64,000 nucleotides of DNA from Pseudodesulfovibrio aespoeensis Aspo-2 (GCF_000176915.2 NC_014844.1:868001-932000), one strand, 5' to 3'. Numbered from the stretch's first letter, positions 2,115 to 60,129 are shown. Numbers and translations: made by a program. Notes: generated by a model not told the origin, from the sequence alone.

Positions 2115-3274
2115 CGGGAAACCTCCTGTCTCCGGGCCGAGAGCACCGGGAAATGGGTGACGAACACCCGGTAGAGGAAGAAGATCGTGGCCACGGCTCC
2201 GACCGTGACGATGATCTCGCCGATGGCCGGATAGTAGGGCCCGGTCGCATAGGGTGCCTTGAAGGAGACGACAAAGACGTTGAACCGGTTCAGCATGACC
2301 CCGGCTACCACCAGAAGCGCGGCTATGAAGAGAAGCCGCCGCGACCGGCGCACTTTTCCGAAGAGGAGCATGAGCCAGGGCAGGACAACGCCCAATCCGA
2401 CTTCGATGAGAAAGGAATTGCTCTGGGCCGATCCGTCCAGGAGCGTGACATACGCGTCCCGGTATACGAGATCGCCGAGCTTGAGGACCATGTAGATGCC
2501 GAGCAGCAGGATGGTGATCCTGGAAAGCGGCGTCAGGATGTGCATTTCCGATTCGAGCTTCAGCGACGAGGTGGCGATGGCGGTCTCCACCACGACCATG
2601 GGATAGCCCACGGCAAAGGCGGAGGTGAGGAACAGGAGCGGTTGCAGCGGCGTGTACCACAATTCCGACATCTTGGTGGGGGCAATGACCAGCAGGGTGC
2701 CGAGGCTGGATTGATGCATGCAGGAAAGCACCACTCCGAGGAGGATGAACACCCACATGGTCTTGTCCAGGATGCGGTCAAGGAACCTGAGCAGGGGGAT
2801 TTTCTCCCCGAGCCGCTCTGCCAGTACCGGGATGAACTCGATCCACAAGACCGTGACATAGGCCATCACGCACATGGCGACCTCGAACAGGGCCGAGTTG
2901 TGGTTCTGGTAGACAACCGCCTTCCAGATGGCCCAGGACCGGCCTATGTCGATGAACACGGCTATGGCCACAAAGGTGTATCCCAGCGCCGCTGTCAGGA
3001 GCGCGGGCCTGGTGATGGCTTCGTAGTAGTGGCGTCCCATGATGTGGGCGAGGAAGGCGGTGGTGAACCCGCCTGCGGCCAGGGCGACCCCGGACGCGAC
3101 ATCAAGGCCGATCCAGATGCCCCACGGGTAGTGGTTGTCCAGGTTGGTCACGGCGCCGAGCCCGTATGTGTACCGAAAGACCAGGGTCACGGCGGCTGCG
3201 AACATGAGGGCCGCCATAACCAGGGTGCCCGGTGTCCAGAAGGGCGCGTCGATGGGTTGCGGCTTATGACTCAT
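2111..3274 (-). CDS. NrfD/HmcC-like polytopic membrane subunit of the cytochrome complex
   Basis: A 387-residue protein with about ten hydrophobic segments. The N-terminal part ([16 protein letters not shown], then [20 protein letters not shown]) is typical of NrfD/PsrC-family quinone-interacting subunits, and the GRHYYE stretch follows helix 2. A longer in-frame start exists, but the ATG at 3274 gives a normal NrfD N-terminus and follows a GGAGG-type site. The gene overlaps the end of the ferredoxin gene by 11 bases and ends in an ATGA overlap with the cytochrome gene, so all three are probably translated as one coupled operon. The inferred job is to exchange electrons between menaquinone and the periplasmic FeS and heme subunits, as in the Hmc, Nhc, Ohc and Tmc complexes of sulfate reducers. 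Confidence 0.9.
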
Positions 3275-4172
3275 GGTTCGCCTCCTTGTCGGATTTGCGG
3301 GATGTGAGGCGCATGATTCCTCCCAGTACGCCGAACAGGACCAGGGGTGACCAGAGATAGCTGAACAGCGAATGCTGAATGGTCTCAGTGATCTTGGGCA
3401 TGGGCTGGCTGGGCAGCTTCTGAAAGCCGACCTTCTCAAAGTCCACGCCCGAGACATACAGCCAGCTCGTGCCGCCGACTTCCGATTCGCCGTAGACGTG
3501 GTCCACGTATCGGGCCGGATCGCTGTCGATGCGCGTATGGGCCAGGGTCAGCAGTTGCGAGCGCTTGCCAAAGGTGATCGCCTCCACCGGGCAGATGGAG
3601 GCGCAACCGGGCTTGCCCCCTTCCTTTTCAATGCGTTCATAACAGAAGGTGCATTTGCGCACCCTGGGCGTGATCGGCTCGTGATATTCGTAGGCCGGGA
3701 TCTCGAAGGGGCAGGCCGCCATGCAGTAGCGGCAGCCGATACACTTGTCGACATCGTAATGGACCGTGCCATTCTCTTTCTTTGTGAGCGCCCCGGTGAT
3801 GCACGCCGAGACGCACGCAGGATCCTGACAGTGCATGCACTGCACCTTGACATAGGTGGGCACAGGCTTGTCGTTGTCGTCCAGCCGCCCCGAATAATGG
3901 CGGTTGATCACCGTGAAGCTGTCGTGCTCGGGACGGCGCTTGATGTCCAGAATTGTCAGGTCGTCGAACCTGACGGCTAACGCAGGCAGGCTGTTGACTT
4001 CCGAGCAGGCCTGTTCGCACTTGCGGCAGCCCACGCAGCGGGTCAGATCGACCAGACAGCCATAGGGGTCCGGCGGGGCCTTGGATTGCCATGCCTGAGC
4101 ATCCCTTGGGGTAGTGGCGGCCACTCCCGCAACCCCAAGTGCGCCCATGAATAACCTTCGTGATATTTCCAT
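3264..4172 (-). CDS. Periplasmic four-cluster ferredoxin-like subunit (HmcB/DsrO type) with Tat signal and C-terminal membrane anchor
   Basis: 302 residues. The N-terminus has a twin-arginine motif (SRRLFMG) followed by a hydrophobic stretch ending in AQA, so folded export is expected. Four cysteine groups follow in the order [37 protein letters not shown] and [17 protein letters not shown], the pattern of four [4Fe-4S] clusters in NrfC/HmcB/DsrO proteins. Near the C-terminus a single hydrophobic helix ([15 protein letters not shown]) can anchor it beside the NrfD subunit. It is the first gene of the three-gene operon, with a GGAGG site before the ATG. It should carry electrons between the NrfD-like subunit and the multiheme cytochrome. 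Confidence 0.92.
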
Positions 4173-4221
4173 GACTCAGTCCTCCAGCTATATTAACTGG
4201 TTACACATTATTCACGCACAA

Positions 4222-4263
4222 AGCATAGGGGAATTCCTGGTTTGGCGCATTGATAATGATCAA
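4222..4263 (-). promoter_or_regulatory. FNR-type box (4250-4263) and -10 element of the cytochrome operon
   Basis: TTGATAATGATCAA at 4250-4263 is a perfect TTGAT-N4-ATCAA palindrome, the FNR consensus. On the minus strand a TATGCT hexamer lies at 4227-4222. If that is the -10 box, the start point is near 4215 and the palindrome centre sits at -41.5, the class II activator position for CRP/FNR proteins. There is no good -35 box, as expected for an activator-dependent promoter. The box also lies about 20 bases before the likely start of the divergent regulator gene, so that gene may control itself. Confidence 0.7.
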
Positions 4264-4283
4264 TTTCTGTGAAAAAAAAGGGC

Positions 4284-4946
4284 ATGAACGCTTACGAACT
4301 GCTGCGCCAGATTCCTCTCCTGGCGAATCTCGATGACGACGCCGTCCAGGCGTTGGCCGAGAGAGCCCGCACGCGGGTCTATGGTCCTGGCGAGCGGATC
4401 GTGAGCCAGTCCGACAATATCCAGGCGTTTTTCATCGTCCTTTCGGGTCACGTCAAAATTTTCAGAAGCAATGAGGATGGCAAGGAACAGATCCTGTATC
4501 TTGTGCAGGAAGGGCAGCCGTTCTGCTTTTGCACGGCGTTCACGGACAGGCCGTATCCGGTCAATGTCACCGCCCTGGAGAAGAGCCAAGTGGCCACCAT
4601 CCCTGCCGCGGACATGGAAGATATGGCCCGCAGGGAGCCGCTGTTGCTGCTCAAGATCATGCAGACCCTGGCCGGGCGTCTGCTGGAGGCCATGAACATG
4701 GTGGAATCCCTGGCCCTGCATGGCACCCAGGAACGCATCGCCCATTTCCTCATGCACGCGGAAACCTGCTCGGCTTCAGGGCCGGGCGAATCCTTCCGCC
4801 TGCCGGTCTCCCACAGGGAACTGGCCAAGATCGTGGGAACAACGCCGGAAACCCTCTCCCGCGTCATTCAAAAATTCAAACGGAACAAGACAATAGAAGC
4901 CAACGGCAAAACCATCCGCATCCTCGACCGCAACGCGCTGGTGTAG
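4284..4946 (+). CDS. CRP/FNR-family transcriptional regulator
   Basis: 220 residues from the ATG at 4284; an in-frame GTG at 4269 would add five residues, and neither start has a clear ribosome site. The first 140 residues form a cyclic-nucleotide-binding-type beta-roll (YGPGERIVSQSDNIQAFFIV). A dimer helix and a winged helix-turn-helix follow, with recognition helix TTPETLSRVIQKFKR. The E-x-x-S-R signature is the one FNR uses to read TTGAT half sites, and such a box is found just upstream. No N-terminal cysteine cluster is present (only FCFC near residue 81), so this is probably not an oxygen-labile FNR of the E. coli kind; the effector is unknown. Divergence from the cytochrome operon suggests it controls that operon. 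Confidence 0.88.
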   Translation: MNAYELLRQIPLLANLDDDAVQALAERARTRVYGPGERIVSQSDNIQAFFIVLSGHVKIFRSNEDGKEQILYLVQEGQPFCFCTAFTDRPYPVNVTALEKSQVATIPAADMEDMARREPLLLLKIMQTLAGRLLEAMNMVESLALHGTQERIAHFLMHAETCSASGPGESFRLPVSHRELAKIVGTTPETLSRVIQKFKRNKTIEANGKTIRILDRNALV

Positions 4947-4957
4947 GGTGAGAGATT

Positions 4958-4993
4958 CCGGGGGGAGAACTTTTGAAAAAGTTTTCCCCCCGG
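4958..4993 (+). terminator. Hairpin after the CRP/FNR gene
   Basis: Two 17-base arms (4958-4974 and 4977-4993) pair with a single G-T type mismatch around a 2-base centre. The arms are C/G-rich outside and A/T-rich inside, a layout shared with the palindrome at 5221-5250, so it may be a dispersed intergenic repeat that also works as a terminator. Confidence 0.55.
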
Positions 4994-5317
4994 ACCCCCC
5001 TTTCCAAACTTTTTGGGTCTACGCCGCCAGGAAGGGCAGACGGGCAAGCAAGGGCTTGATGGCGGCGTAGGGGGCTGTCGTTAGCAGGAAGGTGGGCCTC
5101 TTTTTTTCAAAGAGAAAGGAAGGGTGCCTTTTCGCGCATCCACGCCCTCTCCGCCGCTGTCCGTCTTTTTGCGTCCCCCAGCCTCGCCTTGCGGCGGAGT
5201 CACAAAGAGTTTTGGAGAGTCCAGAGAACCTTTTCCAAAAGGTTCTCTGGCCGCCGGAGGCATCACTCCGCAAGCGCGTCCATTGACACCCATCTTGAGC
5301 AGCCGTACCTTCCGGGC
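4994..5317. other. Intergenic region with a repeat-like palindrome
   Basis: No convincing gene lies here. The short open frames have no ribosome site and no recognisable family. The stretch holds a perfect 14-base-arm palindrome at 5221-5250 and C/T-rich sequence. The promoter of the lactate dehydrogenase pair must lie here, but I cannot point to clear -35/-10 boxes. Confidence 0.5.
5221..5250. repeat. Perfect 30-bp palindrome
   Basis: Left arm CCAGAGAACCTTTT, two-base centre, and the exact reverse complement on the right. The AACCTTTT/AAAAGGTT core resembles the AACTTTT core of the hairpin at 4958, suggesting members of one small intergenic repeat family. Confidence 0.6.
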
Positions 5318-6715
5318 ATGACTGAATATGCCACTTTCTTGACCGCTGCCCACGCGGCGTTTTTGCGCGACCTGTTCCCTGGGGACGGGTGTGTCCTGTC
5401 GCCCGAGGGGTTGGCCGCGTTTTCCACGGATGCCAGCCGGGAGCGGGCCATGCCCTGGGCTGTGGTCCGGCCCCAGGGGCGGGCGCAGGTGGTGGAACTG
5501 CTGCGCTGGGCTGATGCGGAGCGGATGCCCGTGTATGGCCGGGCGCGCGGCACCGGGCGGGTGGGCGGCGCGGTACCGTCGCTGGGCGGGGTGGTGGTCT
5601 CCATGCTGCGCATGGCGGGCGAACCGGTGGTGGATGCGGACGATTTCGTGGCCGTGGTCCAGCCTGGGGTGATCACCGCCGATCTCCAGGCGGCGTGTGC
5701 GGCCAAGGGGCTTTTTTATCCGCCGGACCCGGCCAGCGTGCGTTTTTCGACCATAGGCGGCAATGTGGCCACCTGCGCGGGCGGGCTGCGCGCCGTCAAG
5801 TACGGGGTCACGCGCGACTGGGTGCTCGGGATCGAGGCCGTGCTGCCGGGCGGGCGCGTCCTGCGGGCGGGCGGGCGGTCGCACAAGGACGTGGTCGGGC
5901 TGGACCTGACCCGGCTTTTCGTGGGCAGCAACGGCAGGCTCGGCCTGATGACCGAGATCATTGTCAAACTCATTCCCCTGCCCGAGACCTCGGCCTCGGC
6001 GTTGGTGGGCTTTGCCGATCTGGCGTCCTCCCTGGCCGGGGCCGGGGCCGTGTTCCGCGCGGGCGTCCTGCCCTCGGCCTGCGAGTTCATGGACCAGGGC
6101 ACGCTTGAGGCGGTGCGCATGGGACCGGGCGGGGATTGCATCCCCCTGGCGCAGGGCGCGCGGGCCGCGCTGCTCTTCAAGCTCGACGGCACCGGGCCGG
6201 GCGTGGCTGCCGAGATGGACAGGCTGATCGCGGCTCTGGCGCCCCTTGGTCCGGTGTCTGTGGAGGTGGGACGGGGCGAGGCCGAGGAGGCTGTCTGGGC
6301 TGTGCGCCGGTCCGTTTCTCCGGCGACCTTCAGGATCGCGCCGGACAAGCTGGCCGAGGACATCGCCGTGCCGCGCGGCCGTGTGGCCGAGGCCGTGGAG
6401 CGCGCCCGCAGGATCGGACAGGCCCACGGGTTGACCGTGCTCTGCTTCGGCCACCTGGGCGATGGCAACATCCATGTCAATATAATGCATGATCGGTCGC
6501 AGCCCGGCGTGGCGGATGCGGCGCACCGGGCCGCCGACGAGATTTTCCGGCTGGCCGTGGAGCTGGGCGGCACCATTTCCGGCGAGCACGGTACAGGCCT
6601 GACCAAGGCTTCGTTTGCCGACGAGCAGTTGGGCCGCGATGCAGTGGAACTGATGCGCGGCGTGCGCCGGGTCTTCGACCCCCATGAGATCATGAACCCC
6701 GGCAAGGGGTGGTAG
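5318..6715 (+). CDS. FAD-linked oxidase, D-lactate/glycolate dehydrogenase subunit (GlcD type)
   Basis: 465 residues from the ATG at 5318. The frame is open further upstream, but that part is not conserved-looking. The PCMH-type FAD-binding domain covers roughly residues 30-210, with RGTGRVGGAVPS and PDPASVRFSTIGGNVATCAGG typical of GlcD/Dld proteins. The C-terminal FAD-oxidase domain contains FGHLGDGNIHVNIM and the ISGEHGTGL motif with its conserved histidine. It oxidises a 2-hydroxy acid, most likely D-lactate in a sulfate reducer, and passes electrons to the FeS partner encoded two bases downstream. Lactate is the standard Desulfovibrio electron donor. Confidence 0.9.
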   Translation: MTEYATFLTAAHAAFLRDLFPGDGCVLSPEGLAAFSTDASRERAMPWAVVRPQGRAQVVELLRWADAERMPVYGRARGTGRVGGAVPSLGGVVVSMLRMAGEPVVDADDFVAVVQPGVITADLQAACAAKGLFYPPDPASVRFSTIGGNVATCAGGLRAVKYGVTRDWVLGIEAVLPGGRVLRAGGRSHKDVVGLDLTRLFVGSNGRLGLMTEIIVKLIPLPETSASALVGFADLASSLAGAGAVFRAGVLPSACEFMDQGTLEAVRMGPGGDCIPLAQGARAALLFKLDGTGPGVAAEMDRLIAALAPLGPVSVEVGRGEAEEAVWAVRRSVSPATFRIAPDKLAEDIAVPRGRVAEAVERARRIGQAHGLTVLCFGHLGDGNIHVNIMHDRSQPGVADAAHRAADEIFRLAVELGGTISGEHGTGLTKASFADEQLGRDAVELMRGVRRVFDPHEIMNPGKGW

Positions 6716-8878: not shown

Positions 8879-11425
<2,547 letters not shown>

Positions 11426-11426
11426 C

Positions 11427-11550
11427 CAGGCTGTTGAAAAACGGCGATCTGCTGCGTTGCTTCGAAAAGGGCAAACCCTCGCGTAGGAAGACTACGCGTC
11501 GGTCTTGCCCTTTTCTCGCGTCTTGCATCGCACCATTTTTGAACAGCCTG
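11427..11550. repeat. 124-bp MITE-like inverted-repeat element, copy 1
   Basis: The element begins CAGGCTGTTGAAAAA and ends with the near-exact inverted form (TTTTTGAACAGCCTG). Long internal arms pair around a GCGTAG...CTACGC centre. A second copy of exactly the same length and orientation lies at 12245-12368. It contains no coding sequence. Size, terminal inverted repeats and dispersal fit a non-autonomous transposable element or a mobile intergenic palindrome. Its position right after secA means it may also serve as a terminator. Confidence 0.75.
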
Positions 11551-11603
11551 CAGTTGTGATATTGTCAAGAGCCTGTACGGGCCGCGCCGCCGAAGCTGAC
11601 AAT

Positions 11604-11634
11604 CAGGCCCGCGAACACGTTGTTCGCGGGCCTG
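11604..11634. terminator. Hairpin between convergent secA and DUF486 gene
   Basis: A 14-base perfect stem (CAGGCCCGCGAACA and its complement) with a 3-base loop lies between the converging ends of the two genes and could stop transcription from both sides. The T-tracts beside it are short. Confidence 0.6.
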
Positions 11635-11642
11635 CTCTATTC

Positions 11643-11984
11643 TCATGATCTGAAGATGAAATAGACCGCGCCGAGCAGGCACAGGGAGGCCCAGAGGTAG
11701 TCCCATTTCAGCGGCTGGTTCATGTACAGGATGCAAAAGGGCGCGAACACGGCCAGGGCCAGCACCTCCTGCATGACCTTGAGCTGGGGCAGGGTCAGGG
11801 CGGTGTAGCCGAGCCGGTTGGCCGGGACCTGGATCATGTACTCGAACAGGGCGATGCCCCAGCTGACCAGGGCGGCGATGTACCACGGGCGCTGGTTCAG
11901 CTCCTTGAGATGGGCGTACCAGGCAAAGGTCATGAAGATGTTGGATGCGGTCAGCAGCAGCGCGGTGTACAACGGTATTCTCAC
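11643..11984 (-). CDS. DUF486 / DMT-like small membrane protein
   Basis: 113 residues from the GTG at 11984. Four transmembrane helices are visible, and the motifs ASNIFMTFAWYAHLKELN, SWGIALFEYMIQVPANRLGY and LKVMQEVLALAVFA match my knowledge of the DUF486 family. This is a small drug/metabolite-transporter-like membrane protein with no established substrate. Longer in-frame starts upstream read into poorly conserved sequence, so the GTG with an AGG site was chosen. It stands alone between two repeat copies. Confidence 0.85.
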   Translation of the reverse strand: MRIPLYTALLLTASNIFMTFAWYAHLKELNQRPWYIAALVSWGIALFEYMIQVPANRLGYTALTLPQLKVMQEVLALAVFAPFCILYMNQPLKWDYLWASLCLLGAVYFIFRS

Positions 11985-12413
11985 AGCAACCTCGCCATGA
12001 AAGAGGGATCGTGGAAAAGGGCGTCCCGACCGGACGGCAGAGCGTAGGGCAAGTCGGTCCCGCAGTCCACTGTTTCCGGCGCGGGCGCAGGGGCGCGGCC
12101 TCCCAAACTTCTCGACGGACCGGCCCGGCTCGTGGTAGGAAGGCGCAAAAAAGAGGGGGGCTTCACGGTTTCCGTCTTTTTCCCGCCCGGCACCTTGACC
12201 ATGTTGGTCCAGGCCATTTCCCACCGGGCGGTTTTTCCGTTTGGCAGGCTGTTGAAAAACATCCGATTGCTGCGTTGCTTCAAAAAGGTCAAATCCTCAC
12301 GTACCGGGAGTACGCTTCGGCCTTGCCCTTTTTTCGCGCCTTGCACTCGAACATTTTTGAACAGCCTGCGAAAAGAATTTTTCAACGGTCTCTGAACCTT
12401 TTGGAGCATCGGC
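11985..12413. other. Intergenic region holding the second 124-bp repeat
   Basis: No gene is supported. Short open frames in this stretch run through the repeat copy and show no family resemblance. The stretch must contain the promoters of the divergent DUF486 gene and of the small gene at 12414; no clear boxes stand out. Confidence 0.5.
12245..12368. repeat. 124-bp MITE-like inverted-repeat element, copy 2
   Basis: Same terminal inverted repeats (CAGGCTGTTGAAAAA and its mirror), same length and same internal palindrome as the copy at 11427-11550, with scattered substitutions in the middle, several of them matched on both arms. Compensating changes suggest the folded form is kept by selection or that the copies derive from different family members. 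Confidence 0.75.
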
Positions 12414-12671
12414 ATGGACAAGTACCAGAAGCAGGCCCTGCAGGTCGCCAAGGAAGTGGTGATCAAGTTCATCGAGGTCGGGCGCATCTCCCCGGCCAAC
12501 TTCGGGCAGAATTTCGACGTGATCTTCAAGGACATCATGCGCACCGTCACCGGAGTGACCGCTGGCGACGGCTCCCGCGAGGCCGAGCTGGCCATGCGGG
12601 CCGACATGGAAGGCGACACGGAAGGCGACATGGACGACGACGCTGACGATGCCCCGGAGCGGAGCGAATAA
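12414..12671 (+). CDS. Small conserved-type protein upstream of ubiE/menG, function unknown
   Basis: 85 residues beginning MDKYQKQALQVAKEVVIKF. The first 55 residues look like a folded helical domain, and the last 30 are strongly acidic (repeated D/E after residue 60). The ATG of the menG-like gene follows its stop codon directly (TAAATG), so the two are translated together. The TTTTGGAGCATCGGC before the ATG supplies a ribosome site. I do not recognise the family. Tight coupling to the methyltransferase is the only functional clue. Confidence 0.75.
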   Translation: MDKYQKQALQVAKEVVIKFIEVGRISPANFGQNFDVIFKDIMRTVTGVTAGDGSREAELAMRADMEGDTEGDMDDDADDAPERSE

Positions 12672-13628
12672 ATGGCCGGGGACCAGTGCCAATCGGCCAC
12701 CGGAGCCAGCACCCCGGACGAACATGGGCGGCGCGTGGCCGACATGTTTGGCCGCATTGCCGGGTGGTACGATTTTCTCAACCACGCCCTGTCCGCCGGG
12801 CAGGACATCTACTGGCGCCATCGCCTGGTCCGGGCCGCCCGGCCCGCGCCCGGCGAGATGGTGCTCGATCTGGCCGCCGGGACCATGGACGTGTCTGTGG
12901 GGCTGGCCCGCCAGTATCCGGAGTGCCGGGTGGCCGCCCTGGATTTCGCCCTGCCCATGCTCACGCAGGGCAAGGGGCGCAAGCTCAAGGACGGCCTTGA
13001 GAAGCGCATCTTCCCGGTCCAGGCCGACGGGCGTGCCCTGCCCCTGCCCGACGCCAGCATGGGCGCGGCCACCATCGCCTTTGGCATCCGCAACATCCTG
13101 CCCCGCCAGGACGCCTACCGCGAATTTTATCGCGTGCTCAAGCCGGGCGCGCGGCTGTGCATCCTCGAATTCGGCACCGGCAGCCGCCGGGTCTGGAAGG
13201 GGCTTTACAATTTCTATCTCAACACCCTGCTGCCCTTTATCGGCGACCGCGTCTCGGGCGATCCGGGCGCGTACCGCTATCTGGCCGAGAGCATCAAGAC
13301 CTTTCCCGACGAGCGCGCCCTGGCCCGCGAGCTGATGGACGCCGGGTTCGACCGCGTCTACCATGTGCCCATGATGTCGGGCATCGTCTATCTGCACGTG
13401 GCCGAGAAGCCGGGCAAGGCGGTGGTGGCTGCGGCTGATGCCTCTGCCGAGCCTCCCGTGTCTCCTGCCGAGCTTGCCGCAAAAACGACGGCTCCCAAAA
13501 AGACGGCGGCTCCCAAAAAGGCGGCTCCCAAAAAGGCGGGTGCAAAGAAGGGCGGGGCAAAGAAAACGGTTTCAAGGAAGGCCGGGAAACCCGCTGCAAA
13601 AGGGGCGTCGGCCAAGGGGACGAAGTAG
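12672..13628 (+). CDS. ubiE: Demethylmenaquinone methyltransferase (UbiE/MenG family) with lysine-rich histone-like tail
   Basis: 318 residues. Residues 1-245 are a UbiE/MenG-type methyltransferase: MFGRIAGWYDFLNH, the SAM-binding motif VLDLAAGTMDVSVGLA, ALDFALPML, and IAFGIRNILPRQDAYREFYRV. It C-methylates the quinone ring in the last step of menaquinone synthesis, which fits mqnB and a polyprenyl synthase close by. After about residue 265 comes an unusual low-complexity tail of repeated AAPKK / AKKGGAKK units, like histone H1 or bacterial histone-like tails. This is absent from ordinary UbiE, which ends near 230-260 residues. The tail is in frame with no sign of error. Confidence 0.9.
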   Translation: MAGDQCQSATGASTPDEHGRRVADMFGRIAGWYDFLNHALSAGQDIYWRHRLVRAARPAPGEMVLDLAAGTMDVSVGLARQYPECRVAALDFALPMLTQGKGRKLKDGLEKRIFPVQADGRALPLPDASMGAATIAFGIRNILPRQDAYREFYRVLKPGARLCILEFGTGSRRVWKGLYNFYLNTLLPFIGDRVSGDPGAYRYLAESIKTFPDERALARELMDAGFDRVYHVPMMSGIVYLHVAEKPGKAVVAAADASAEPPVSPAELAAKTTAPKKTAAPKKAAPKKAGAKKGGAKKTVSRKAGKPAAKGASAKGTK

Positions 13629-13666
13629 GGAGGGGGATGGCTCAGGCCTCTGTGGACAGACGTTCC

Positions 13667-13873
13667 TTATGAGGATAAGGAGCGGCCAAAAGAGATGATG
13701 AGCAGGCCGAGGATGATGGCAGCCAGTCCGATGAAGCGCAGGAATTTCGGCGGCTGGGTGGCCAGCCTCAGCAGCATGCGCGGCATGCGTTCGGCAAAGA
13801 GAAAATAGGGGAGCCCCTCGAAGACGAAGGCCAGCCCCACGGCTGCGATCAGCAATGACCAGTCGATGTTCAT
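13667..13873 (-). CDS. DUF2065 small membrane protein
   Basis: 68 residues with two transmembrane helices: one at residues 5-20 (LLIAAVGLAFVFEGLPYFLF) and one at 46-62 (IGLAAIILGLLIISF). The central FEGLPYFLFAERM/RMLLRLATQP pattern is what I know of the DUF2065 family, found widely in proteobacteria with no assigned function. It is read from an ATG at 13873, diverges from the nucleotide-sugar dehydrogenase and converges on ubiE. Confidence 0.82.
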   Translation of the reverse strand: MNIDWSLLIAAVGLAFVFEGLPYFLFAERMPRMLLRLATQPPKFLRFIGLAAIILGLLIISFGRSLSS

Positions 13874-13934
13874 ACGCCCTTACTAGCCGGGAACACGGCC
13901 CGTGTCCACCCGACCCATACATGGAGACTCTTTC

Positions 13935-15257
<1,323 letters not shown>

Positions 15258-43112: not shown

Positions 43113-44774
43113 CTACCGCTCGAAGACCGCGCCCCTGGATGCGGAGGTGACGAGCCGGGCGTAGCGGCGCAGGAACGGGGAAGCAATTTCCTTGACCACG
43201 GGCGTGTAGGTCTTGCGCCGCGCTTCAAGCTCGGCGTTGTCCACCAAAAGGGTGATGGACCGGGCCGGGATGTCGATGGCGATCCTGTCACCGGTCTGGA
43301 TCAGCCCCACCGGGCCGCCCGCCGCCGCCTCGGGCGAGACATGGCCGATGGCCGCGCCGCGCGTGCCGCCTGAGAACCGGCCATCCGTGATCAGGGCCAC
43401 CGAGCCGCCAAGACCCATGCCGGAGATGGCCGAGGTGGGCGTGAGCATTTCGCGCATGCCCGGGCCGCCCTTGGGGCCTTCGTAAAGCACCACCACCACG
43501 TCGCCGGGCTTGATCTCGCCGCCCAGAATGGCCTGCACGCTTTCCTCCTCGGAGTGGAACACCCTGGCCGTGCCCGTGTTGACCATCATCTCCGGGGCCA
43601 CTGCCGACTGCTTCACGCAGCAGCCCTCGGGCGCGATGTTGCCGTAGAGGATGGCGATGCCTCCTTCCTCGGAATAGGGGGTGTCGATGGGCCGGACGAT
43701 GTCGTGATTGGTGACCTTGGCGCCGAGATCCTTGAGGTTTTCGCCCAGGGTCTTGCCGGTGACGGTCATTACGTCGAGGTTGAGCAGGCCGCGCTTGACC
43801 AGCTCGCTCATGACGCCGGGGATGCCGCCCGCCTCGTTCAGGTCTTCCATATAGTGCGGGCCTGCCGGGGAGAGCTTGCACAGGTTGGGCGTCTTTCTGC
43901 TGATCTCGTTGAACATTTCCAGGCTCAGGTCGAGGCCTGCCTCGGCAAAGAGGGCGGGCAGGTGCAGGGTGGTGTTGGTGGAGCAGCCAAGGGCCATGTC
44001 CATGGTCACGGCGTTGTGCACGGATTTCGCGGTCACGATGTCGCGCGGGCGGATGTTGCGCGCAAGCATTTCCATGACCTGCATGCCGGTGTGTTTGGCC
44101 AGGCGTATCCTGGCCGACATGACCGCCGGGATGGTGCCGTTGCCCGGCAGGGCCAGGCCGATGGACTCGGACAGACAGTTCATGGAGTTGGCCGTGAACA
44201 TGCCCGCGCACGAGCCGCAGGTGGGGCAGGCGGATTCTTCGAGCACGGTCAGCTCGTCCTCGTTCATGGACCCGGTCTTGACCCGGCCCACGCCCTCGAA
44301 GACCGTGATCAGGTCCGCGCTCTTCCGGCGTCCGGCCAGCATGGGTCCGCCGGAGACGATGATGGCCGGGATGTTCAGGCGCAGGATGGCCATGAGCATG
44401 CCGGGCACGATCTTGTCGCAGTTGGTGATGCAGACCAGGGCGTCAAAGGGATGGGCCGTGGCCATGATCTCCACCGAGTCGGCGATGATCTCGCGGCTGG
44501 GCAGGGACATTCGCATGCCTTCGTGGTTCATGGCCAGCCCGTCGCAGACGCCGATGGCCGGGAACTCCATGGGCGTGCCCCCGGCGTGGCGGATGCCGTC
44601 CTTGACGGCCCTGGCGATGGTGTGGAGATGGACGTGGCCGGGGATGATTTCGTTGGCGGCGTTGCACACGCCGATGAGGGGGCGGTTGAGTTCCTCTCTG
44701 GTCAGGCCGGTCGCGTAGAGGAGCGAGCGGTGGGGGGCTTTTTCCAGCCCGCCGGTCATGATCTTGCTGCGCAT
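43113..44774 (-). CDS. ilvD: Dihydroxy-acid dehydratase
   Basis: 553 residues, normal length. Cluster cysteines lie in [11 protein letters not shown] near residue 120 and [20 protein letters not shown] near 190. The C-terminal [23 protein letters not shown] is diagnostic of the IlvD/Edd family. It makes the 2-oxo acids for valine, isoleucine and leucine in the cytoplasm. The isoleucine/valine function is favoured over Edd by length and sequence. It is the last ordinary chromosomal gene before the inverted-repeat cassette. Confidence 0.96.
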
Positions 44775-44876
44775 GGGGTGACTCCTTCGTTGGTCGAAAT
44801 GCGGACGGTTACTTCACCGCCAATGGCAGCGCCTGTCAACTCATAATGGGGATGCGGGGGATGAGATGGGGAAGGG

Positions 44877-44975
44877 GGAGAGAGTCGGTCGAACCTGCGG
44901 TTCTCCCTCCAAGTTTATTGATTGCCCTCCCGGCGGGGTTACTTTCTTTTGCTGCCCCAAAAGAAAGTAACCAAA
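44877..44975 (+). repeat. Outer left inverted repeat of the AIPR cassette
   Basis: About 95 bases ending in a hairpin whose arms GGTTACTTTCTTTTG and its complement enclose GCTGCCC. The same sequence, inverted and about 90 percent alike by eye, lies at about 48491-48592. In the right copy the repeat continues without a break into the inner repeat. Here it is cut off after CCAAA at 44975 by the IS element. Confidence 0.85.
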
Positions 44976-45042
44976 TACCATGCTGGCCTTACCTGAGGTA
45001 GTCTGAGTTTGAACGACAACTTAGAACCGCAGGAGGCACAGC

Positions 45043-46110
45043 ATGGCAAAGTATTCAGTATCACGAATCAGCGATTTTCTGGAAGCGTTTGAAGGCCGGG
45101 AGATTCACGTCGGCGTGGACGTTCACAAACTCAGTTATCATGTGGCGGTGCGTCGCGAGGATGGGGCTTGTGAGACATGGGTAGCGCCTGCCAAGCCATA
45201 TGATTTGGTCCTGGCGTTGCTCGAATTGGGGCAGCCAATAGCACAGGTCACTTATGAATCCGGCCCAACGGGTTTTGGGCTATGTCGGGCCATGGAAGAG
45301 GCTGGCATAGATTGCTGCGTGGTTGCCCCGAGCAAGGTTCCCCGTGCTGTGGTTGCGGGGTCAAAGACAGATCGGTTGGACTGTATCAAACTGGCCGACT
45401 ATGCCGCCAAGGGCATGCTTAAGGGGATCGCCGTGCCTACTCCTGCCGAGGAAGGAGAGCGCAGCCTGATTCGCCGCAGGTCGCAGATTGTCGACAACAT
45501 CCGCCGCGCCAAGTTACGGATCAAGTCGTTGCTGCTTTACGTCGGCGCGGAGGAGCCGCCAGGGCTATCGCAGTGGTCCGGGCAAGCCGTTGGGAGACTG
45601 TCGACTCTTCAAATCGAGCCTGCCGCCAAGTTGACGCTGGACAGCCTGTTGCGCGAGTTGTCTTGGCAGAAGGTGGAGCTAAAAGAGATCGAGGCGACTC
45701 TGTCCATGATCATGGTAAAACGGCATGAAGAGGCTATGAAGCGGCTGCGGACGGTCCCCGGCGTCGGCCCGACGGTCGCCACCACGTTTTTGCTGGAGGT
45801 CTTTCGTCCGGAGCGTTTTCAGTGTCATGAACAGGTCGTGTCGTATCTCGGTCTTGCGCCGACGGTTCGCCAAAGTGGTGAGCGATCATCACGCGGCCGA
45901 CTTGTTCCTGTCGGACAAAAACGATTGCGAAGCCTCCTGGTCGAATCCGCTTGGATATGGCAGGCAAAAGTTCCTAAAATCAAAGAACGTTACAACCAGC
46001 TTGTCGCAAAAACAGGAGTGCCGCAAAAAGCCATTGCAGCCATAGCTCGCCTCCTGGCAATCGTTTTATGGCGTTTGAGTCTTTCGGGCCGTTGTTATCA
46101 AAGTTCATAA
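45043..46110 (+). CDS. IS110-family transposase (DEDD recombinase)
   Basis: 355 residues, AGGAGG before the ATG. The N-terminal RuvC-like DEDD domain shows HVGVDVHKLSYHVAV near residue 22, then VTYESGPTGFG and SKTDRLDCIKLADYA. The C-terminal Transposase_20 domain shows LRTVPGVGPTVATTFLLEV near residue 235, YLGLAPTVRQSG and the serine-containing SSRGRLVPVG. IS110 enzymes recombine double-stranded DNA guided by a bridge RNA encoded in the element's own non-coding end. The gene is complete and looks active. Confidence 0.95.
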   Translation: MAKYSVSRISDFLEAFEGREIHVGVDVHKLSYHVAVRREDGACETWVAPAKPYDLVLALLELGQPIAQVTYESGPTGFGLCRAMEEAGIDCCVVAPSKVPRAVVAGSKTDRLDCIKLADYAAKGMLKGIAVPTPAEEGERSLIRRRSQIVDNIRRAKLRIKSLLLYVGAEEPPGLSQWSGQAVGRLSTLQIEPAAKLTLDSLLRELSWQKVELKEIEATLSMIMVKRHEEAMKRLRTVPGVGPTVATTFLLEVFRPERFQCHEQVVSYLGLAPTVRQSGERSSRGRLVPVGQKRLRSLLVESAWIWQAKVPKIKERYNQLVAKTGVPQKAIAAIARLLAIVLWRLSLSGRCYQSS

Positions 46111-46269
46111 CCTGAATCACCAATCTGCGCGGGCGTTTTTCGGCTGTTTAGACAGCGTGAACCAAATGGCGCAATAATGATTTTGTACCGAACGAATGGT
46201 ACTTGGTGCCAGAGAGCACGAATAGGAAAAGGCTATACACAGATTCCCTTGACGGTGGGCCACATAGGA
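46111..46269 (+). ncRNA. Candidate bridge RNA region of the IS element
   Basis: The 3' non-coding end of the IS holds several small hairpins, among them GCTGT-TTAG-ACAGC and GTACC-N8-GGTAC followed by GTGC-N6-GCAC. IS1111-type elements encode their guide RNA in this position. No direct evidence of transcription can be read, and the guide loops were not matched to target and donor with certainty. Confidence 0.35.
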
Positions 46270-46436
46270 GAAAAGGGGCTTTCCCACGCTTATCCGCGAG
46301 TAAGCCCGGCCAAGAATCTGATCAAATCCGGTCTGCTCCCGAATCAAGTCCTCCGTTTCGCTCCGTCCGTGATTCGAAAAGCCGCAGCCTCGGCTTTGTC
46401 AGCTTCTAGGCCGCACTTACTAATCGCTCGGGTTGG
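46270..46436 (+). repeat. Inner left inverted repeat of the AIPR cassette
   Basis: From GAAAAGGGGCT through GCTTATCCGCGAGTA and GAATCAAGTCCTCCG to ATCGCTCGGGTTGG. It is the inverted match of 48324-48490, with a few substitutions. It contains short open frames that are mirrored in the other copy and are not taken as genes. Confidence 0.85.
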
Positions 46437-46529
46437 ATTTGACTTGAAATATCTATTCTTGATATGCTATATGTATTTAAGGCAAACATTCTAATATCAC
46501 TTGTTATCTCGAAGGGGTGTGGTGAAGTG

Positions 46530-48284
46530 ATGAAAGCCAGTCGGCAAGACTTTTCGCTTATAAACACAAGGCTTAAACAGTTGATGGAGATTCATGATAT
46601 TGAACATTTTCAAAATGCATTTTACTATTTAGTTCTAGAACTGTTGTTTGACCTCCAAGATGATGAAATTGATAATGCGGTAACAGATAGTTTTTATCTT
46701 TCAATGGCGTCAAACAATGCCTCTGGACACGATCGAGGTATAGACGCCATCTACATAGACGATAACTCGGCACCTCCGATTGTTCATTTGTTAAATTTTA
46801 AATATACTAGCAAATTTGACAACCTTTTGAGCCACTATCCTTCCCGTGAAATTGATAAGGTGCTCTCCTTTTTTCACGATTTGATGAGTGAGGGGATGGA
46901 TTCGTTTGAAAATGCTAATAGTGCGTTAAGGGATAAGATTAATGATATTTGGAAGTTGATGGACTCAGATACTCCAAGTTTCCGCATTCATTTTTGCAGT
47001 AACAGCTATAATGCTTTCGAGGAATCTGAGAAAAAAAGAATTGATAGCAAAATTTGCAATTATTCGAACACGTCAGTGGAATACCACTTAATGCCAGACC
47101 TTGTTGAAATAATGACCCACAAAAGCAAAACGATAATCAGCGGGAAAATTAAAGCTATTGACAAAAAGTTTTTTGAAAAGTCTGAGGGTGATATCCGGGC
47201 TTTAATATTGGAGGTTGATGCAAAGGATCTTCTTAGGATTGTATGTGATGATGAAGGGCTTAGGAATGACGCAGCTCTTGAAGACTATGAAGTGTTGAAG
47301 ACAAGAAAAATACTAGAGGAAGCCTTTGAGGATAATGTTCGTGTGTATTTAACACAGCGTTCAAAAATCAACAAAAACATCAGAAAAACGGCTCTTTCAG
47401 AAAGCAGTCACAGGTTTTTTTATTTCAACAACGGAATAACAATAACGTGTAGAAAATTTTCCTATCCAAACTATAGGGCTCCTATTGTAACGCTAGAAGA
47501 TGCACAGGTCGTAAATGGTAGTCAAACTATTCATGCTCTTTTTGAGGCATTTCTAAAGGATAGTTCTAAATTCGATCATATTCAAGTGCTTTGTCGAATT
47601 TATGAAACAACCAATGCGGTCTTAAGTTCAGAGATTGCTGAGAACACAAATAGCCAAAATCCAGTTAAGAGTCGAGATATACGGTCTAATGACTATGTGC
47701 AAAAGAAACTGGAAGTTGAGCTTCTGTCGAAAGGCTTCTACTATGAGAGAAAGCGTGGGCAACATAGAGACAAGAAAGGTGGTGTTCGAATTGATGCAGA
47801 GAAAGCGGGGCAGGCATTGATGTCTTTCTATAATAAATTACCAGCTGAGGCAAAAGATAAGAAGCGCTTAATTTTTGCAGAAAAATACGAAGATGTGTTT
47901 TGCGATAGCATTACATCTGAAGAGATTGTTTTGTCATATACTTGTTATCAGTTTGTAGAAAAAATGAAGAAGAAGTGGAGGCGTGAAGCTATTTCTACAG
48001 GTGAATTTGATCAAAAATCATATTTAATGCATGCCTCGTATTATATACTTTCATTGATGCGTGTGTTGGCTGAAGGTGATGGAGTTGATATTCGTTCATC
48101 TGATCACGTTAGAACAATTGAAGCTTGCTATGAAAAAGCAGCAAGGATTGTTGAGAAAGCTGTTGAAAAAGAAGTTGACCGAGTCAAGAATACAGGCGAG
48201 ACATACAGCAACCGGCTTTTCTTTAAAAGCGCCAGGCCCAAAAAATATATCTCTCAGCTCATTGATGATAAATATGAGTTTTGA
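46530..48284 (+). CDS. AIPR-family (abortive infection phage resistance) protein with nuclease-like N-terminus
   Basis: 584 residues from the ATG at 46530; an open frame extends to 46464. The central block RSKINKNIRKTALSESSHRF, then FFYFNNGITITCRKF near residue 300 and DAQVVNGSQTIHALFEAF, is the AIPR domain signature. The N-terminal part has GIDAIYIDDN near residue 70 followed by VHLLNFKYTSKF. This resembles a PD-(D/E)XK nuclease core in which the usual Q/E of the QXK motif is replaced by N. The gene is markedly AT-rich with A/T-ending codons, unlike its high-GC neighbours, so it was acquired. It is the only cargo between long inverted repeats. AIPR proteins are linked to abortive phage resistance; the target here is unknown. 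Confidence 0.88.
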   Translation: MKASRQDFSLINTRLKQLMEIHDIEHFQNAFYYLVLELLFDLQDDEIDNAVTDSFYLSMASNNASGHDRGIDAIYIDDNSAPPIVHLLNFKYTSKFDNLLSHYPSREIDKVLSFFHDLMSEGMDSFENANSALRDKINDIWKLMDSDTPSFRIHFCSNSYNAFEESEKKRIDSKICNYSNTSVEYHLMPDLVEIMTHKSKTIISGKIKAIDKKFFEKSEGDIRALILEVDAKDLLRIVCDDEGLRNDAALEDYEVLKTRKILEEAFEDNVRVYLTQRSKINKNIRKTALSESSHRFFYFNNGITITCRKFSYPNYRAPIVTLEDAQVVNGSQTIHALFEAFLKDSSKFDHIQVLCRIYETTNAVLSSEIAENTNSQNPVKSRDIRSNDYVQKKLEVELLSKGFYYERKRGQHRDKKGGVRIDAEKAGQALMSFYNKLPAEAKDKKRLIFAEKYEDVFCDSITSEEIVLSYTCYQFVEKMKKKWRREAISTGEFDQKSYLMHASYYILSLMRVLAEGDGVDIRSSDHVRTIEACYEKAARIVEKAVEKEVDRVKNTGETYSNRLFFKSARPKKYISQLIDDKYEF

Positions 48285-48824
48285 GTAAGATTCATTCAAG
48301 TGGTGAGAAAAACAACTGCAGACCCAACCCGAGCGATTAGTAGGTGCGGCCTAGAAGCTGACAAAGCCGAGGCTGCGGCTTTTCGAATCACGGACGGAGC
48401 GAAGCGGAGGACTTGATTCGGGAGCAGACCGGGTTTGATCAGATTCTTGGTCGCGCCTACTCGCGGATAAGCGAGCGCCAGCCCCTTTTCTTTGGTTACT
48501 TTCTTTTGGGGCAGCAAAAGAAAGTAACCCCGCCGGGAGGGCAATACAAAAAGCTTGGAGGGAGAACCGAAGGTTCGACCAGCTCTTTTCCTCATTTTCC
48601 TTTCTCAATCTTCTCTCAGCCCCCCTTACGCACCGCCACCACCGCCCCTCTTTCTTTCCGATTATCCTTCCTCTCGTCGGCCAGATGGGGTAGACTTCAA
48701 GGTAAATCGAAAATAGTAGCCATTCCTATTTAGCTATGATAAGAAGGCTCAAACGAGATGTTGAAAACATGCCGGTGGGCGCACCCCCCGTGTTCATCGG
48801 CCTAAAGCGTATGGAGGAAATACA
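48285..48824. other. Region between the AIPR gene and katA
   Basis: Contains the intact right inverted repeat (48324-48592) and then about 230 bases leading to katA. The latter part is rich in C/T and then AT-rich just before katA (ATAGTAGCCATTCCTATTTA at about 48713), where the katA promoter should lie. No gene is supported. Confidence 0.6.
48324..48592 (-). repeat. Intact right inverted repeat of the AIPR cassette
   Basis: Holds the inner part (48324-48490) and the outer part with the GGTTACTTTCTTTTG hairpin (48491-48592) in one continuous stretch. It shows what the left copy looked like before the IS inserted. Confidence 0.85.
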
Positions 48825-50342
48825 ATGGCAAAAAAGAAAAAAGAGACGTTGACCGGCGCGTTTGGCCACCCTATTGGCAATGACCTCAACTCCGTGACCG
48901 CCGGGCCGCGCGGGCCGGTACTGATGCAGGATGTGCATCTGTTGGAAAAGCTCTCCCATTTTGATCGCGAGCGCATTCCGGAGCGGGTGGTCCATGCCAA
49001 GGGCGCGGGTGCCTACGGCTATTTCGAGGTCACGGCGGACGTGACCAAATACACCAGGGCCGCCTTTCTCTCCAAGGTGGGCAAGAAGACCGACGTGTTC
49101 GCCCGCTTCTCCACCGTGGGCGGCGAAAAGGGCAGCGCCGACGCCGAGCGCGATCCGCGCGGGTTTGCCCTCAAGTTCTACACCGAGGAAGGCAACTACG
49201 ACATGACCGGCAATAACACCCCGGTCTTCTTCATCCGCGATCCGCTCAAGTTCCCGGACTTCATCCACACCCAGAAGCGCGACCCGGCCACCAACCTGAA
49301 AAGCCCGACCATGGCCTGGGATTTCTGGTCTCTGACGCCCGAATCCATCCATCAGGTGACCATCCTCTTTTCGGATCGTGGCACTCCGGCCACCTTCCGC
49401 AACATGAACGGCTACTCCAGTCACACCTATAAGTGGTATAATGCCAAGGGCGACTACTTCTGGGTCCAGTATCACTTCAAGACCGACCAGGGGATCAGGA
49501 ACCTGACCGGCCCGGAAGCCGCCGCCATGTGCGGCAAGGACCCGGATCACGCCACCCGCGACCTGCACGACGCCATCGCGCGCGGCGAGTATCCCTCCTG
49601 GACCCTGGAGATGCAGATCCTCACGCCCAAGCAGGCCGAGAAGTTCGGCTGGGACATCTTCGATATCACCAAGGTCTGGCCGCACAAGGAAGTCCCGCCC
49701 ATCACCGTGGGCAAGCTGGTGCTCAATCGCAACCCGGAGAACTATTTTGCCGAGGTGGAGCAGGCCGCCTTCAATCCGAGCAACCTGGTGCCCGGCATCG
49801 GCGTGTCGCCCGACAAGATGCTCCAGGGCCGCCTGTTCTCCTACCACGACACCCATTTGCACCGGCTCGGGCCCAACTACCACCTGATCCCGGTCAACCA
49901 GCCCAAGAACGCGCCTGAGAAGAGCTACCAGCGCGACGGTGCCATGCGCACGGACCACAACGGCGGGGGCGGCCCCAACTACTGGCCCAACAGCTTTGGC
50001 GGTCCGGCCCCGGACAACACCTCCATCGAGCCGCCCATCCCCCTGGACGGCCAGGGAGGCCGCCACGAGTTCGCCCACAAGAACGACGATTTCGTGCAGC
50101 CGGGCAACCTCTACCGCCATGTCATGACCGAGCAGGACCGGGCCAATCTGGTCAGCAACATCCTGGGTAGCCTGGGTCAGACGCCAAAGCCCATCCAGTT
50201 GCGCCAGTGCGCCCTGTTCTACAAGGCGGACGCGGACTACGGCACCCGTGTGGCCAAGGGGCTCGGCCTTGATCTGACCAAGGTCAAGACGCTGGCCTCC
50301 ATGACCCAGGAGGAGCGCGTGGCCGCCACGCCCGTCAAGTAA
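48825..50342 (+). CDS. katA: Monofunctional heme catalase, small-subunit type
   Basis: 505 residues. The distal histidine lies in [16 protein letters not shown] near residue 55, the distal asparagine region in [15 protein letters not shown] near 130, and the proximal heme tyrosine in [17 protein letters not shown] near 340. It splits hydrogen peroxide to water and oxygen in the cytoplasm. It begins with a lysine-rich MAKKKKE. The upstream AT-rich stretch has a loose TAGTAGCCATT similarity to the PerR sites of this window, too weak to call. A pair of hairpins follows the gene. Confidence 0.96.
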
Positions 50343-56625: not shown

Positions 56626-58431
<1,806 letters not shown>

Positions 58432-58699
58432 GATTTCCGTATCTAGTGGTGACATGTCTCGCCGGTGCGGGCGCGGCCCGACGGCCAGGAGTATCGGAAG
58501 AGTCTTCTACGGCATTTGGTTGTGGTTGTCTAATATATATGGGCGGGGTCGGCGGGGGGAGAGATGCGGGCAGGATTTGATCGACCTGGGTAAGCCGTCC
58601 ATAGGCTACTGCCGTTTCTGCCCCCGCAGGCCGGGCTGTCAGTGACCCATCATCCGGCAGGTGGACACCAATAGATGAACGTCATTTTTCTTCTTGCGC

Positions 58700-60035: not shown

Positions 60036-60129
60036 TGGCGGAAGCGTACAGGAGTCGAACCTGCCTGTGACATCACTGCCACACATTGGTTTTGAAGACC
60101 AAGCGCCACACCGGTGACGAAACGCTTCC
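60036..60129 (-). tRNA. selC: tRNA-Sec (anticodon TCA)
   Basis: On the minus strand the 8-base acceptor arm GGAAGCGT pairs with ACGCTTCC, and CCA is encoded at the 3' end. The anticodon arm TTGGT-CTTCAAA-ACCAA gives anticodon TCA, which reads UGA. The variable region is long, and the T arm is CAGG-TTCGACT-CCTG. The 8-base acceptor and the 94-base length are hallmarks of bacterial selenocysteine tRNA. The cell therefore makes selenoproteins, probably formate dehydrogenases or hydrogenases encoded elsewhere. Confidence 0.95.

What the first reader, a model, noticed from the sequence alone, without database searches (positions are those of the whole stretch)
44877..48592. AIPR defence gene carried alone between long inverted repeats, later split by an insertion sequence
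The right inverted repeat (48324-48592) is continuous. The left copy is broken into 44877-44975 and 46270-46436, and the break is exactly filled by an IS110-type element. Removing the IS restores a simple cassette: about 270 bp inverted repeat, AT-rich AIPR gene, inverted repeat. The cassette has no recombinase, so it is either moved in trans or assembled from repeats. A single-gene anti-phage module with long palindromic borders is not a layout I know as described.
Basis: partly seen in the sequence, partly recalled or inferred. Interest (0 to 1): 0.8.

Follow-up and report, generated by a model that had tools for sequence, protein, structure and literature searches.

The report
Swappable defence-gene cassettes between inverted repeats
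In this genus of sulfate-reducing bacteria, short AT-rich anti-phage genes sit snugly between two outward-pointing copies of a genus-specific repeat, and two nearly identical strains carry different defence genes between the same two repeats, so the repeats appear to mark exchangeable defence slots.

Summary
An intact AIPR/AbiU-type gene (46524-48284) lies between inverted arms (44876-44975 plus 46269-46441, against 48319-48591; 93% alike). An IS110 element splits the left arm. The arms belong to a structured repeat, 'R', found in 32 of 34 genomes of this genus (Pseudodesulfovibrio) and in none of 263 other genomes of the class. Most copies are solitary. Where two copies are less than 5 kb apart they usually point tails outward (50 against 5 inverted pairs).

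Such pairs bracket compact AT-rich cargo in at least 12 places, mostly known or candidate defence genes. Upstream of lepA, seven species carry seven different cargos in such pairs. In two congeners with about 98% identical flanks the cargo is swapped (Old nuclease against dGTPase), with joints 20-46 bp inside the arms. In four of these species both arms are orthologous while the cargo differs.

I read this as recombinase-free cassette exchange, most likely homologous recombination through the arms. How R itself spreads, and how new cargo first enters, is unknown. The lepA site also holds defence genes without R in two species. Closest known things are core defence hotspots and pdif/xrs modules. 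Defence activity is inferred, not tested.

The parts
44876..44975 (-). outer (tail) part of the left arm, one copy of repeat R
   Evidence: inverted repeats I2 and I3; nhmmer/blastn matches
44976..46268 (+). IS110-type insertion sequence inside the left arm (transposase 45043-46110)
   Evidence: Pfam DEDD_Tnp_IS110 and Transposase_20; the same IS lies in other R copies of this chromosome
46269..46441 (-). inner (head) part of the left arm
   Evidence: inverted repeat I1, 93% complementary to 48319-48491
46524..48284 (+). AIPR / AbiU-type gene, 586 aa (an in-frame earlier start at 46464 would give 606 aa)
   Evidence: Pfam PF10592 1.2e-47; PADLOC AbiU 4.1e-51; D70, D74, K93 conserved in distant relatives
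48319..48591 (+). right arm, complete copy of repeat R (head at 48319, tail at 48591)
   Evidence: single-strand DNA fold z = -5.8
44937..44972 (.). tail palindrome of the left arm
   Evidence: palindromic repeat D2; helix 3 of the consensus with both-side changes
48494..48529 (.). tail palindrome of the right arm
   Evidence: same as left
43113..44774 (-). ilvD, left flanking host gene
   Evidence: Pfam ILVD_EDD; orthologues in 35 of 36 genomes of the genus
48825..50342 (+). katA, right flanking host gene
   Evidence: Pfam Catalase
56629..58437 (-). lepA; its upstream region is the cassette hotspot in congeners, but holds no R cassette here
   Evidence: G000:C1:924629-926437; no R copy near it

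Best explanation
The locus is a defence cassette: one compact gene with its own short promoter region, seated between two inverted, head-inward copies of a genus-specific structured repeat (R). The arms act as portable homology. DNA arriving from a congener with the same arms but other cargo can replace the resident cargo by crossovers inside the two arms, so no recombinase gene is needed. Because the arms are inverted, recombination within the chromosome can only flip the cargo, whereas direct repeats would delete it. SHOWN: the geometry, its recurrence, the defence-type cargo, the orthology of both arms at the lepA site across four species, and a cargo swap between two congeners with ~98% identical flanks whose joints fall inside the arms. 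INFERRED: RecA-type homologous recombination, delivery by phage or transformation, and anti-phage activity. UNKNOWN: how R copies spread and how a new gene first lands between two heads. The AIPR cassette probably came in with its own arms, since they resemble each other (94%) far more than any other copy (83% or less). IS110 then inserted into the left arm.
For: Recurrence and compactness: 12 cassettes, GC 0.32-0.45 against 0.46-0.62 for their loci, gaps between gene and arm mostly under 170 bp. Cargo: AIPR/AbiU (7), PDC-M30 A+B (26), ApeA with a PDB match of 1e-80, Old 4e-56, NsnA/PD-T4-2A 8e-60 with a HEPN gene, RmrA/capP-like, dGTPase 2e-63, Stk2/PD-T4-6-like kinase with PP2C (68). Geometry: of inverted neighbours under 5 kb, 50 point tails out and 5 tails in; at 400-2500 bp, 12 against 0. 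Cargo swap: G008 (strain SYK) against G007, flanks 97-98% identical up to both arms, then Old against dGTPase. Joints: 2.5-3% difference in the outer arms, but 15% in the last 46 bp of one head and 27% in the first 20 bp of the other. Tree: lepA-side arms of G007/G008/G033/G032 form one clade and far-side arms another. Inactive alternatives: no Y1 transposase gene in this genome or in G003, G005, G031, G033; no Xer, attC or target-duplication signature.
Against: Only one recent swap was available at this resolution, so 'crossovers inside the arms' rests on one pair of genomes. The lepA site also carries defence genes without R in G004 (SIR2-STAND) and G026 (HEC-01), so R is not required for turnover there. 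Some tail-out pairs 3-5 kb apart simply flank host genes of host GC. The ilvD-katA site itself shows no exchange: relatives are empty there or rearranged. The fixed head end at which unrelated cargos begin would also suit a site-specific enzyme.
Confidence: 0.6

Rival explanations
1. The unit arm-cargo-arm is a non-autonomous transposon (R copies as very long terminal inverted repeats) or a site-specific cassette, moved in trans by an unidentified transposase or recombinase.
For: Unrelated cargos begin at the same head end of R. In G031 empty units with a conserved ~120 bp spacer are dispersed as whole dimers, and the arms of the DUF3800 cassette belong to the same left and right arm subfamilies as the empty units. 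The AIPR arms look imported together. R has a strongly conserved, covarying fold as many transposase-recognised ends do.
Against: At lepA the arms are orthologous across species while the cargo differs, which is exchange, not fresh insertion. The joint positions differ between the two arms. No target duplication at the AIPR cassette and no Xer or attC motif. Y1 transposases are absent from several R-rich genomes. No autonomous member was found.
Confidence: 0.25
2. Generic defence hotspots lie in intergenic regions that also collect dispersed repeats; the bracketing is incidental or a by-product of inversions and rearrangements at repeats.
For: lepA holds defence genes without R in G004 and G026. 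R copies are common (9 to 62 per complete genome) and mostly solitary. Gene order around ilvD and katA is scrambled among relatives.
Against: The bracketing is tight (cargo within tens of bases of both arms) and always head-in (12 against 0). It occurs at several independent sites and has no analogue for ordinary genes at this spacing.
Confidence: 0.12
3. R is chiefly a structured RNA or DNA insulator/terminator, and pairs are kept around foreign genes because they shield or regulate them; exchange is secondary.
For: Two helices show compensatory changes (19 of 34 pairs; covariation score 0.345 against 0.145 shuffled). In the cassettes the tails always face the host genes.
Against: Most copies have no foreign gene beside them. 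No Rfam family fits. Neither transcription nor termination was testable here.
Confidence: 0.03

Closest known systems
Core defense hotspots (cDHS1/2) of Pseudomonas aeruginosa, PMC10250203
   Same: different defence systems at one site between conserved host genes, often with no mobile gene; homologous recombination through flanks proposed there
   Different: those sites are large (1-224 kb) and defined by core genes and tRNA/tmRNA; here single or paired genes sit within tens of bases of two inverted structured repeats, and the same repeats also bracket cassettes at other sites
pdif/xrs modules of Acinetobacter plasmids (described in PMC12893667 and works it cites)
   Same: small gene modules without their own recombinase between inversely oriented short sites
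   Different: those are short XerC/XerD sites on plasmids; R is ~250-280 bp, chromosomal, and has no Xer motif
Integron gene cassettes with attC sites
   Same: compact cassettes, recombination sites that fold as single strands with bulged bases, defence cargo known in integrons
   Different: no GTTRRRY/RYYYAAC arrangement in R (0 of 74 copies), no array in one orientation, arms inverted around one cargo
REP/BIME repeats and IS110 elements that target them (PMC1525189, PMC11208160)
   Same: dispersed extragenic structured repeats, often in inverted pairs, targeted by IS110
   Different: R is much longer, brackets cargo, and shows no tie to Y1/RAYT genes
Minimal mobile elements of Neisseria (from memory; term occurs in PMC3388099)
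   Same: cargo swapped between strains by homologous recombination through shared flanks
   Different: there the flanks are conserved genes; here the flanks are dispersed repeats that recur at several sites

Membership tests
AIPR / AbiU abortive-infection family (the cargo) | profile match over most of the protein | tested here: met
   Pfam PF10592 1.2e-47; PADLOC AbiU residues 38-596, 4.1e-51
AIPR / AbiU abortive-infection family (the cargo) | anti-phage activity | not testable with these tools
   needs plaque assays; PD-(D/E)XK-like D70/D74/K93 conserved and FokI is the top but weak fold match, E 0.05
pdif/xrs module | XerC/XerD sites at both ends | tested here: not met
   1-2 of 74 copies match a Xer arm with two mismatches
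Integron cassette | attC site with R'' RYYYAAC and R' GTTRRRY | tested here: not met
   0 of 74 copies
Composite transposon / mobile insertion cassette | target-site duplication at the outer ends | tested here: inconclusive
   none at the AIPR cassette, but the edges are not known to the base
Composite transposon / mobile insertion cassette | autonomous relative with transposase and the same ends | tested here: inconclusive
   none seen between the R pairs read; the search was not exhaustive
REP/RAYT system | Y1 (TnpA-REP) transposase in genomes rich in the repeat | tested here: not met
   no PF01797 match in G000, G003, G005, G031, G033
Core defence hotspot | one conserved site, different defence cargo in different genomes | tested here: met
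   upstream of lepA, seven cargos in seven species; not shown for the ilvD-katA site
Core defence hotspot | tRNA or tmRNA landing site at the flank | not tested
   -

The most novel reading that the evidence does not exclude
A genus-wide cassette system in which a dedicated structured repeat in inverted pairs serves as a standard socket: any congener's defence gene flanked by the same arms can be plugged in, at several chromosomal sites, without a recombinase of its own. The inverted geometry keeps cargo from being lost.
Probability: 0.45. Interest if true: 0.85.

Novelty: new variant of a known kind. Interest (0 to 1): 0.68.

Why it matters
How chromosomal defence genes turn over without visible mobile elements is an open question; hotspot papers can only suggest flank recombination. 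Here the borders are short, recognisable and reused at several sites, so exchange can be seen to the base and tested directly. R pairs also give a simple handle to find new defence genes: two cargos here (410 aa in G015, 156 aa in G013) match nothing in Pfam or PADLOC yet sit in the same kind of socket as Old, ApeA and dGTPase.

Tried and rejected
Xer, attC and target-duplication signatures were looked for and not found. RAYT/Y1 origin was rejected because several R-rich genomes lack the gene. Known RNA family: none. Phage or plasmid carriage: no phage match; two plasmid matches cover only the tail palindrome. IMG/VR pattern hits were coding sequences, not R. Literature searches by the palindrome sequence and by topic gave no description of this repeat or layout. 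Tail-out pairs 3-5 kb apart in G003, G005 and one in G013 (L152) enclose host genes of host GC and were not counted as cassettes. The strong orientation bias under 400 bp is partly non-independent, because whole dimers were duplicated.

Full report
WHAT IS THERE. The 273-nt inverted repeat is real: 46269-46441 against 48319-48491 (93%), with the remainder at 44876-44975 against 48491-48591, split by a 1.3-kb IS110 element at 44976-46268. Between the arms is one intact gene, AIPR in Pfam (1e-47) and AbiU in PADLOC (4e-51). The interval is 1,877 bp, GC 0.37 against 0.62 for the window; the gene starts 82 bp from one arm and ends 34 bp from the other. The protein keeps D70, D74 and K93 across distant relatives. 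A moderate AlphaFold2 model (mean pLDDT 73.6) has FokI as its best fold match, but only at E 0.05. A PD-(D/E)XK nuclease is therefore likely, not shown.

THE REPEAT. The arms belong to a dispersed family, called R here. A sequence-only model (A1/R1) finds 9 to 62 copies in each of 12 complete genomes of the genus. It finds R in 32 of 34 sampled congeners and in none of 263 other genomes of the class, with strict filters. R has a long imperfect stem (AGAAGCTGACCAA with TTGGATCAGATTCT, bulged bases included) and a tail palindrome. Of 34 consensus pairs, 19 show changes on both sides; 94.9% of cells pair, against 83.3% when shuffled and at most 55% when partners are slid. As single-stranded DNA it folds 5.8 sd below shuffles. 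It matches no Rfam family.

GEOMETRY. I call the end at 48319 the head and the end at 48591 the tail. Of neighbouring R copies less than 5 kb apart in 12 complete genomes, 50 pairs are head-in (tails out), 5 are tail-in, 29 are tandem; beyond 5 kb there is no such bias (12 against 19). Part of the 50 is non-independent: in G031 whole dimers with a conserved ~120-bp spacer have been duplicated. At spacings of 400-2500 bp, where cargo fits, it is 12 against 0, from about eight independent sites (p about 0.008).

CARGO. Head-in pairs enclose: AIPR/AbiU (this window); DUF5131 + TcmP = PADLOC PDC-M30 B+A (same chromosome, L023); ApeA (G033; PDB 9hxi, E 1e-80); Old (G008); dGTPase (G007); NsnA/PD-T4-2A-like GmrSD_N protein plus RiboL-PSP-HEPN (G032); HTH-ImmA protein related to RmrA/capP plus a 197-aa protein (G019); PP2C plus Stk2/PD-T4-6-like kinase (G024); DUF3800 (G031); an unknown 410-aa protein (G015); a small, possibly decayed 156-aa frame (G013); and a 127-aa protein with a weak PD-Lambda-6 match (G021, E 2e-4). 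Interval GC is 0.32-0.45; the arms mostly lie within 170 bp of the gene. Four tail-out pairs 3-5 kb apart hold host genes at host GC; they are not cassettes.

THE lepA SOCKET. lepA is present in all 36 genomes. I looked upstream of it in about 27. Seven species hold seven different cargos between head-in R pairs (G007, G008, G015, G019, G024, G032, G033). G018 has no repeat and no cassette there. G004 and G026 carry defence genes there (SIR2-STAND, HEC-01) without R. The site is thus a defence hotspot in its own right, and in one set of species R bounds it.

EXCHANGE. G007 and G008 are 97-98% identical up to position L124:8009 and again from L124:9805; between these lie 1.6-1.8 kb of unrelated DNA, dGTPase in one and Old in the other. 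Within the arms, differences are 2.5-3%, but 15% in the last 46 bp of the lepA-side head and 27% in the first 20 bp of the far-side head; three other R copies shared by the two genomes show no such head effect. In a tree of 74 copies the lepA-side arms of G007, G008, G033 and G032 group together, and so do their far-side arms. Cargo has thus been replaced between fixed arms. Unequal joints inside the arms fit homologous crossovers better than one fixed site, though this is a single pair of genomes.

THE AIPR LOCUS ITSELF. The two AIPR arms are 94% alike and at most 83% like any other sampled copy; their nearest outside relative is a copy in G029. They probably arrived together with the gene. 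In G021 ilvD and katA are adjacent without repeat or cargo. In the closest relative, G011, similarity upstream of ilvD runs to 44870, within 6 bp of the left arm, then stops; katA lies elsewhere in G011 and G001. The AIPR gene has no close homologue in the 35 congeners searched. So the site is empty or rearranged in relatives, and no exchange is shown here.

MECHANISM. Shown: geometry, recurrence, cargo type, arm orthology, one recent swap. Inferred: homologous recombination through arms, delivered by transduction or transformation; inverted arms spare the cargo from deletion. Not known: what multiplies R, and how a gene first comes to lie exactly between two heads. All cargos begin at the same head end of R, which leaves room for a site-specific step at birth of a cassette. 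No Xer, attC, target duplication or Y1 transposase supports a known enzyme.

COMPARISON AND VERDICT. Core defence hotspots (PMC10250203, read) share the turnover and the suggestion of flank recombination; lateral transduction with homologous recombination (PMC12829572) is a plausible carrier. pdif/xrs modules share small recombinase-free modules between inverted sites but fail the Xer test. I rate this a new variant of a known kind. Anti-phage function of any cargo here rests on homology only.

Noticed in passing
L186 (G004) 1804-4131 and L196 (G026) 3479-5265: The lepA upstream site holds a SIR2-STAND protein (GC 0.37) and a HEC-01 pair without any R repeat or long inverted repeat nearby.
   Followed up: partly
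window 45043-46110; L023, L027, L028, L029: All six copies of this IS110 element in the loci held lie inside R repeats at about the same place beside the tail palindrome, like REP-targeting IS110 elements; bridge RNA not examined.
   Followed up: partly
11 complete genomes of the genus: R copies cluster in one half of the chromosome in 10 of 11 genomes tested (Rayleigh p 0.02 to 7e-7), but not in the window's own genome.
   Followed up: partly
L167 (G031) 10255-14167: A cytosine methyltransferase and an NgoMIV-type restriction enzyme lie next to R copies, but not inside a head-in pair.
   Followed up: partly
L200 (Caballeronia sp. M1242 plasmid) 5540-6062: A ~520-bp inverted, tail-out unit ends in a similar palindrome (GTCACTTTCTTTG...CAAAGAAAGTAACC); dispersed in Caballeronia replicons, no cargo seen in the four places read.
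   Followed up: partly
L124 (G008) 10534-10839: A 101-aa reading frame of unknown family lies beside the far-side tandem R copy; the DNA there is 93% identical in G033.
   Followed up: no
L023 7468-7875: A 135-aa secreted-looking protein (GC 0.43) lies between two tandem R copies next to the PDC-M30 cassette.
   Followed up: no
L101-L104, L118-L122: In G021, G025 and G034 R forms tandem arrays (period about 345-380 or 740-770 bp), one of them next to a flagellin gene, mostly without cargo.
   Followed up: no
window 60040-60129: Selenocysteine tRNA gene (Rfam tRNA-Sec, 82 bits).
   Followed up: no
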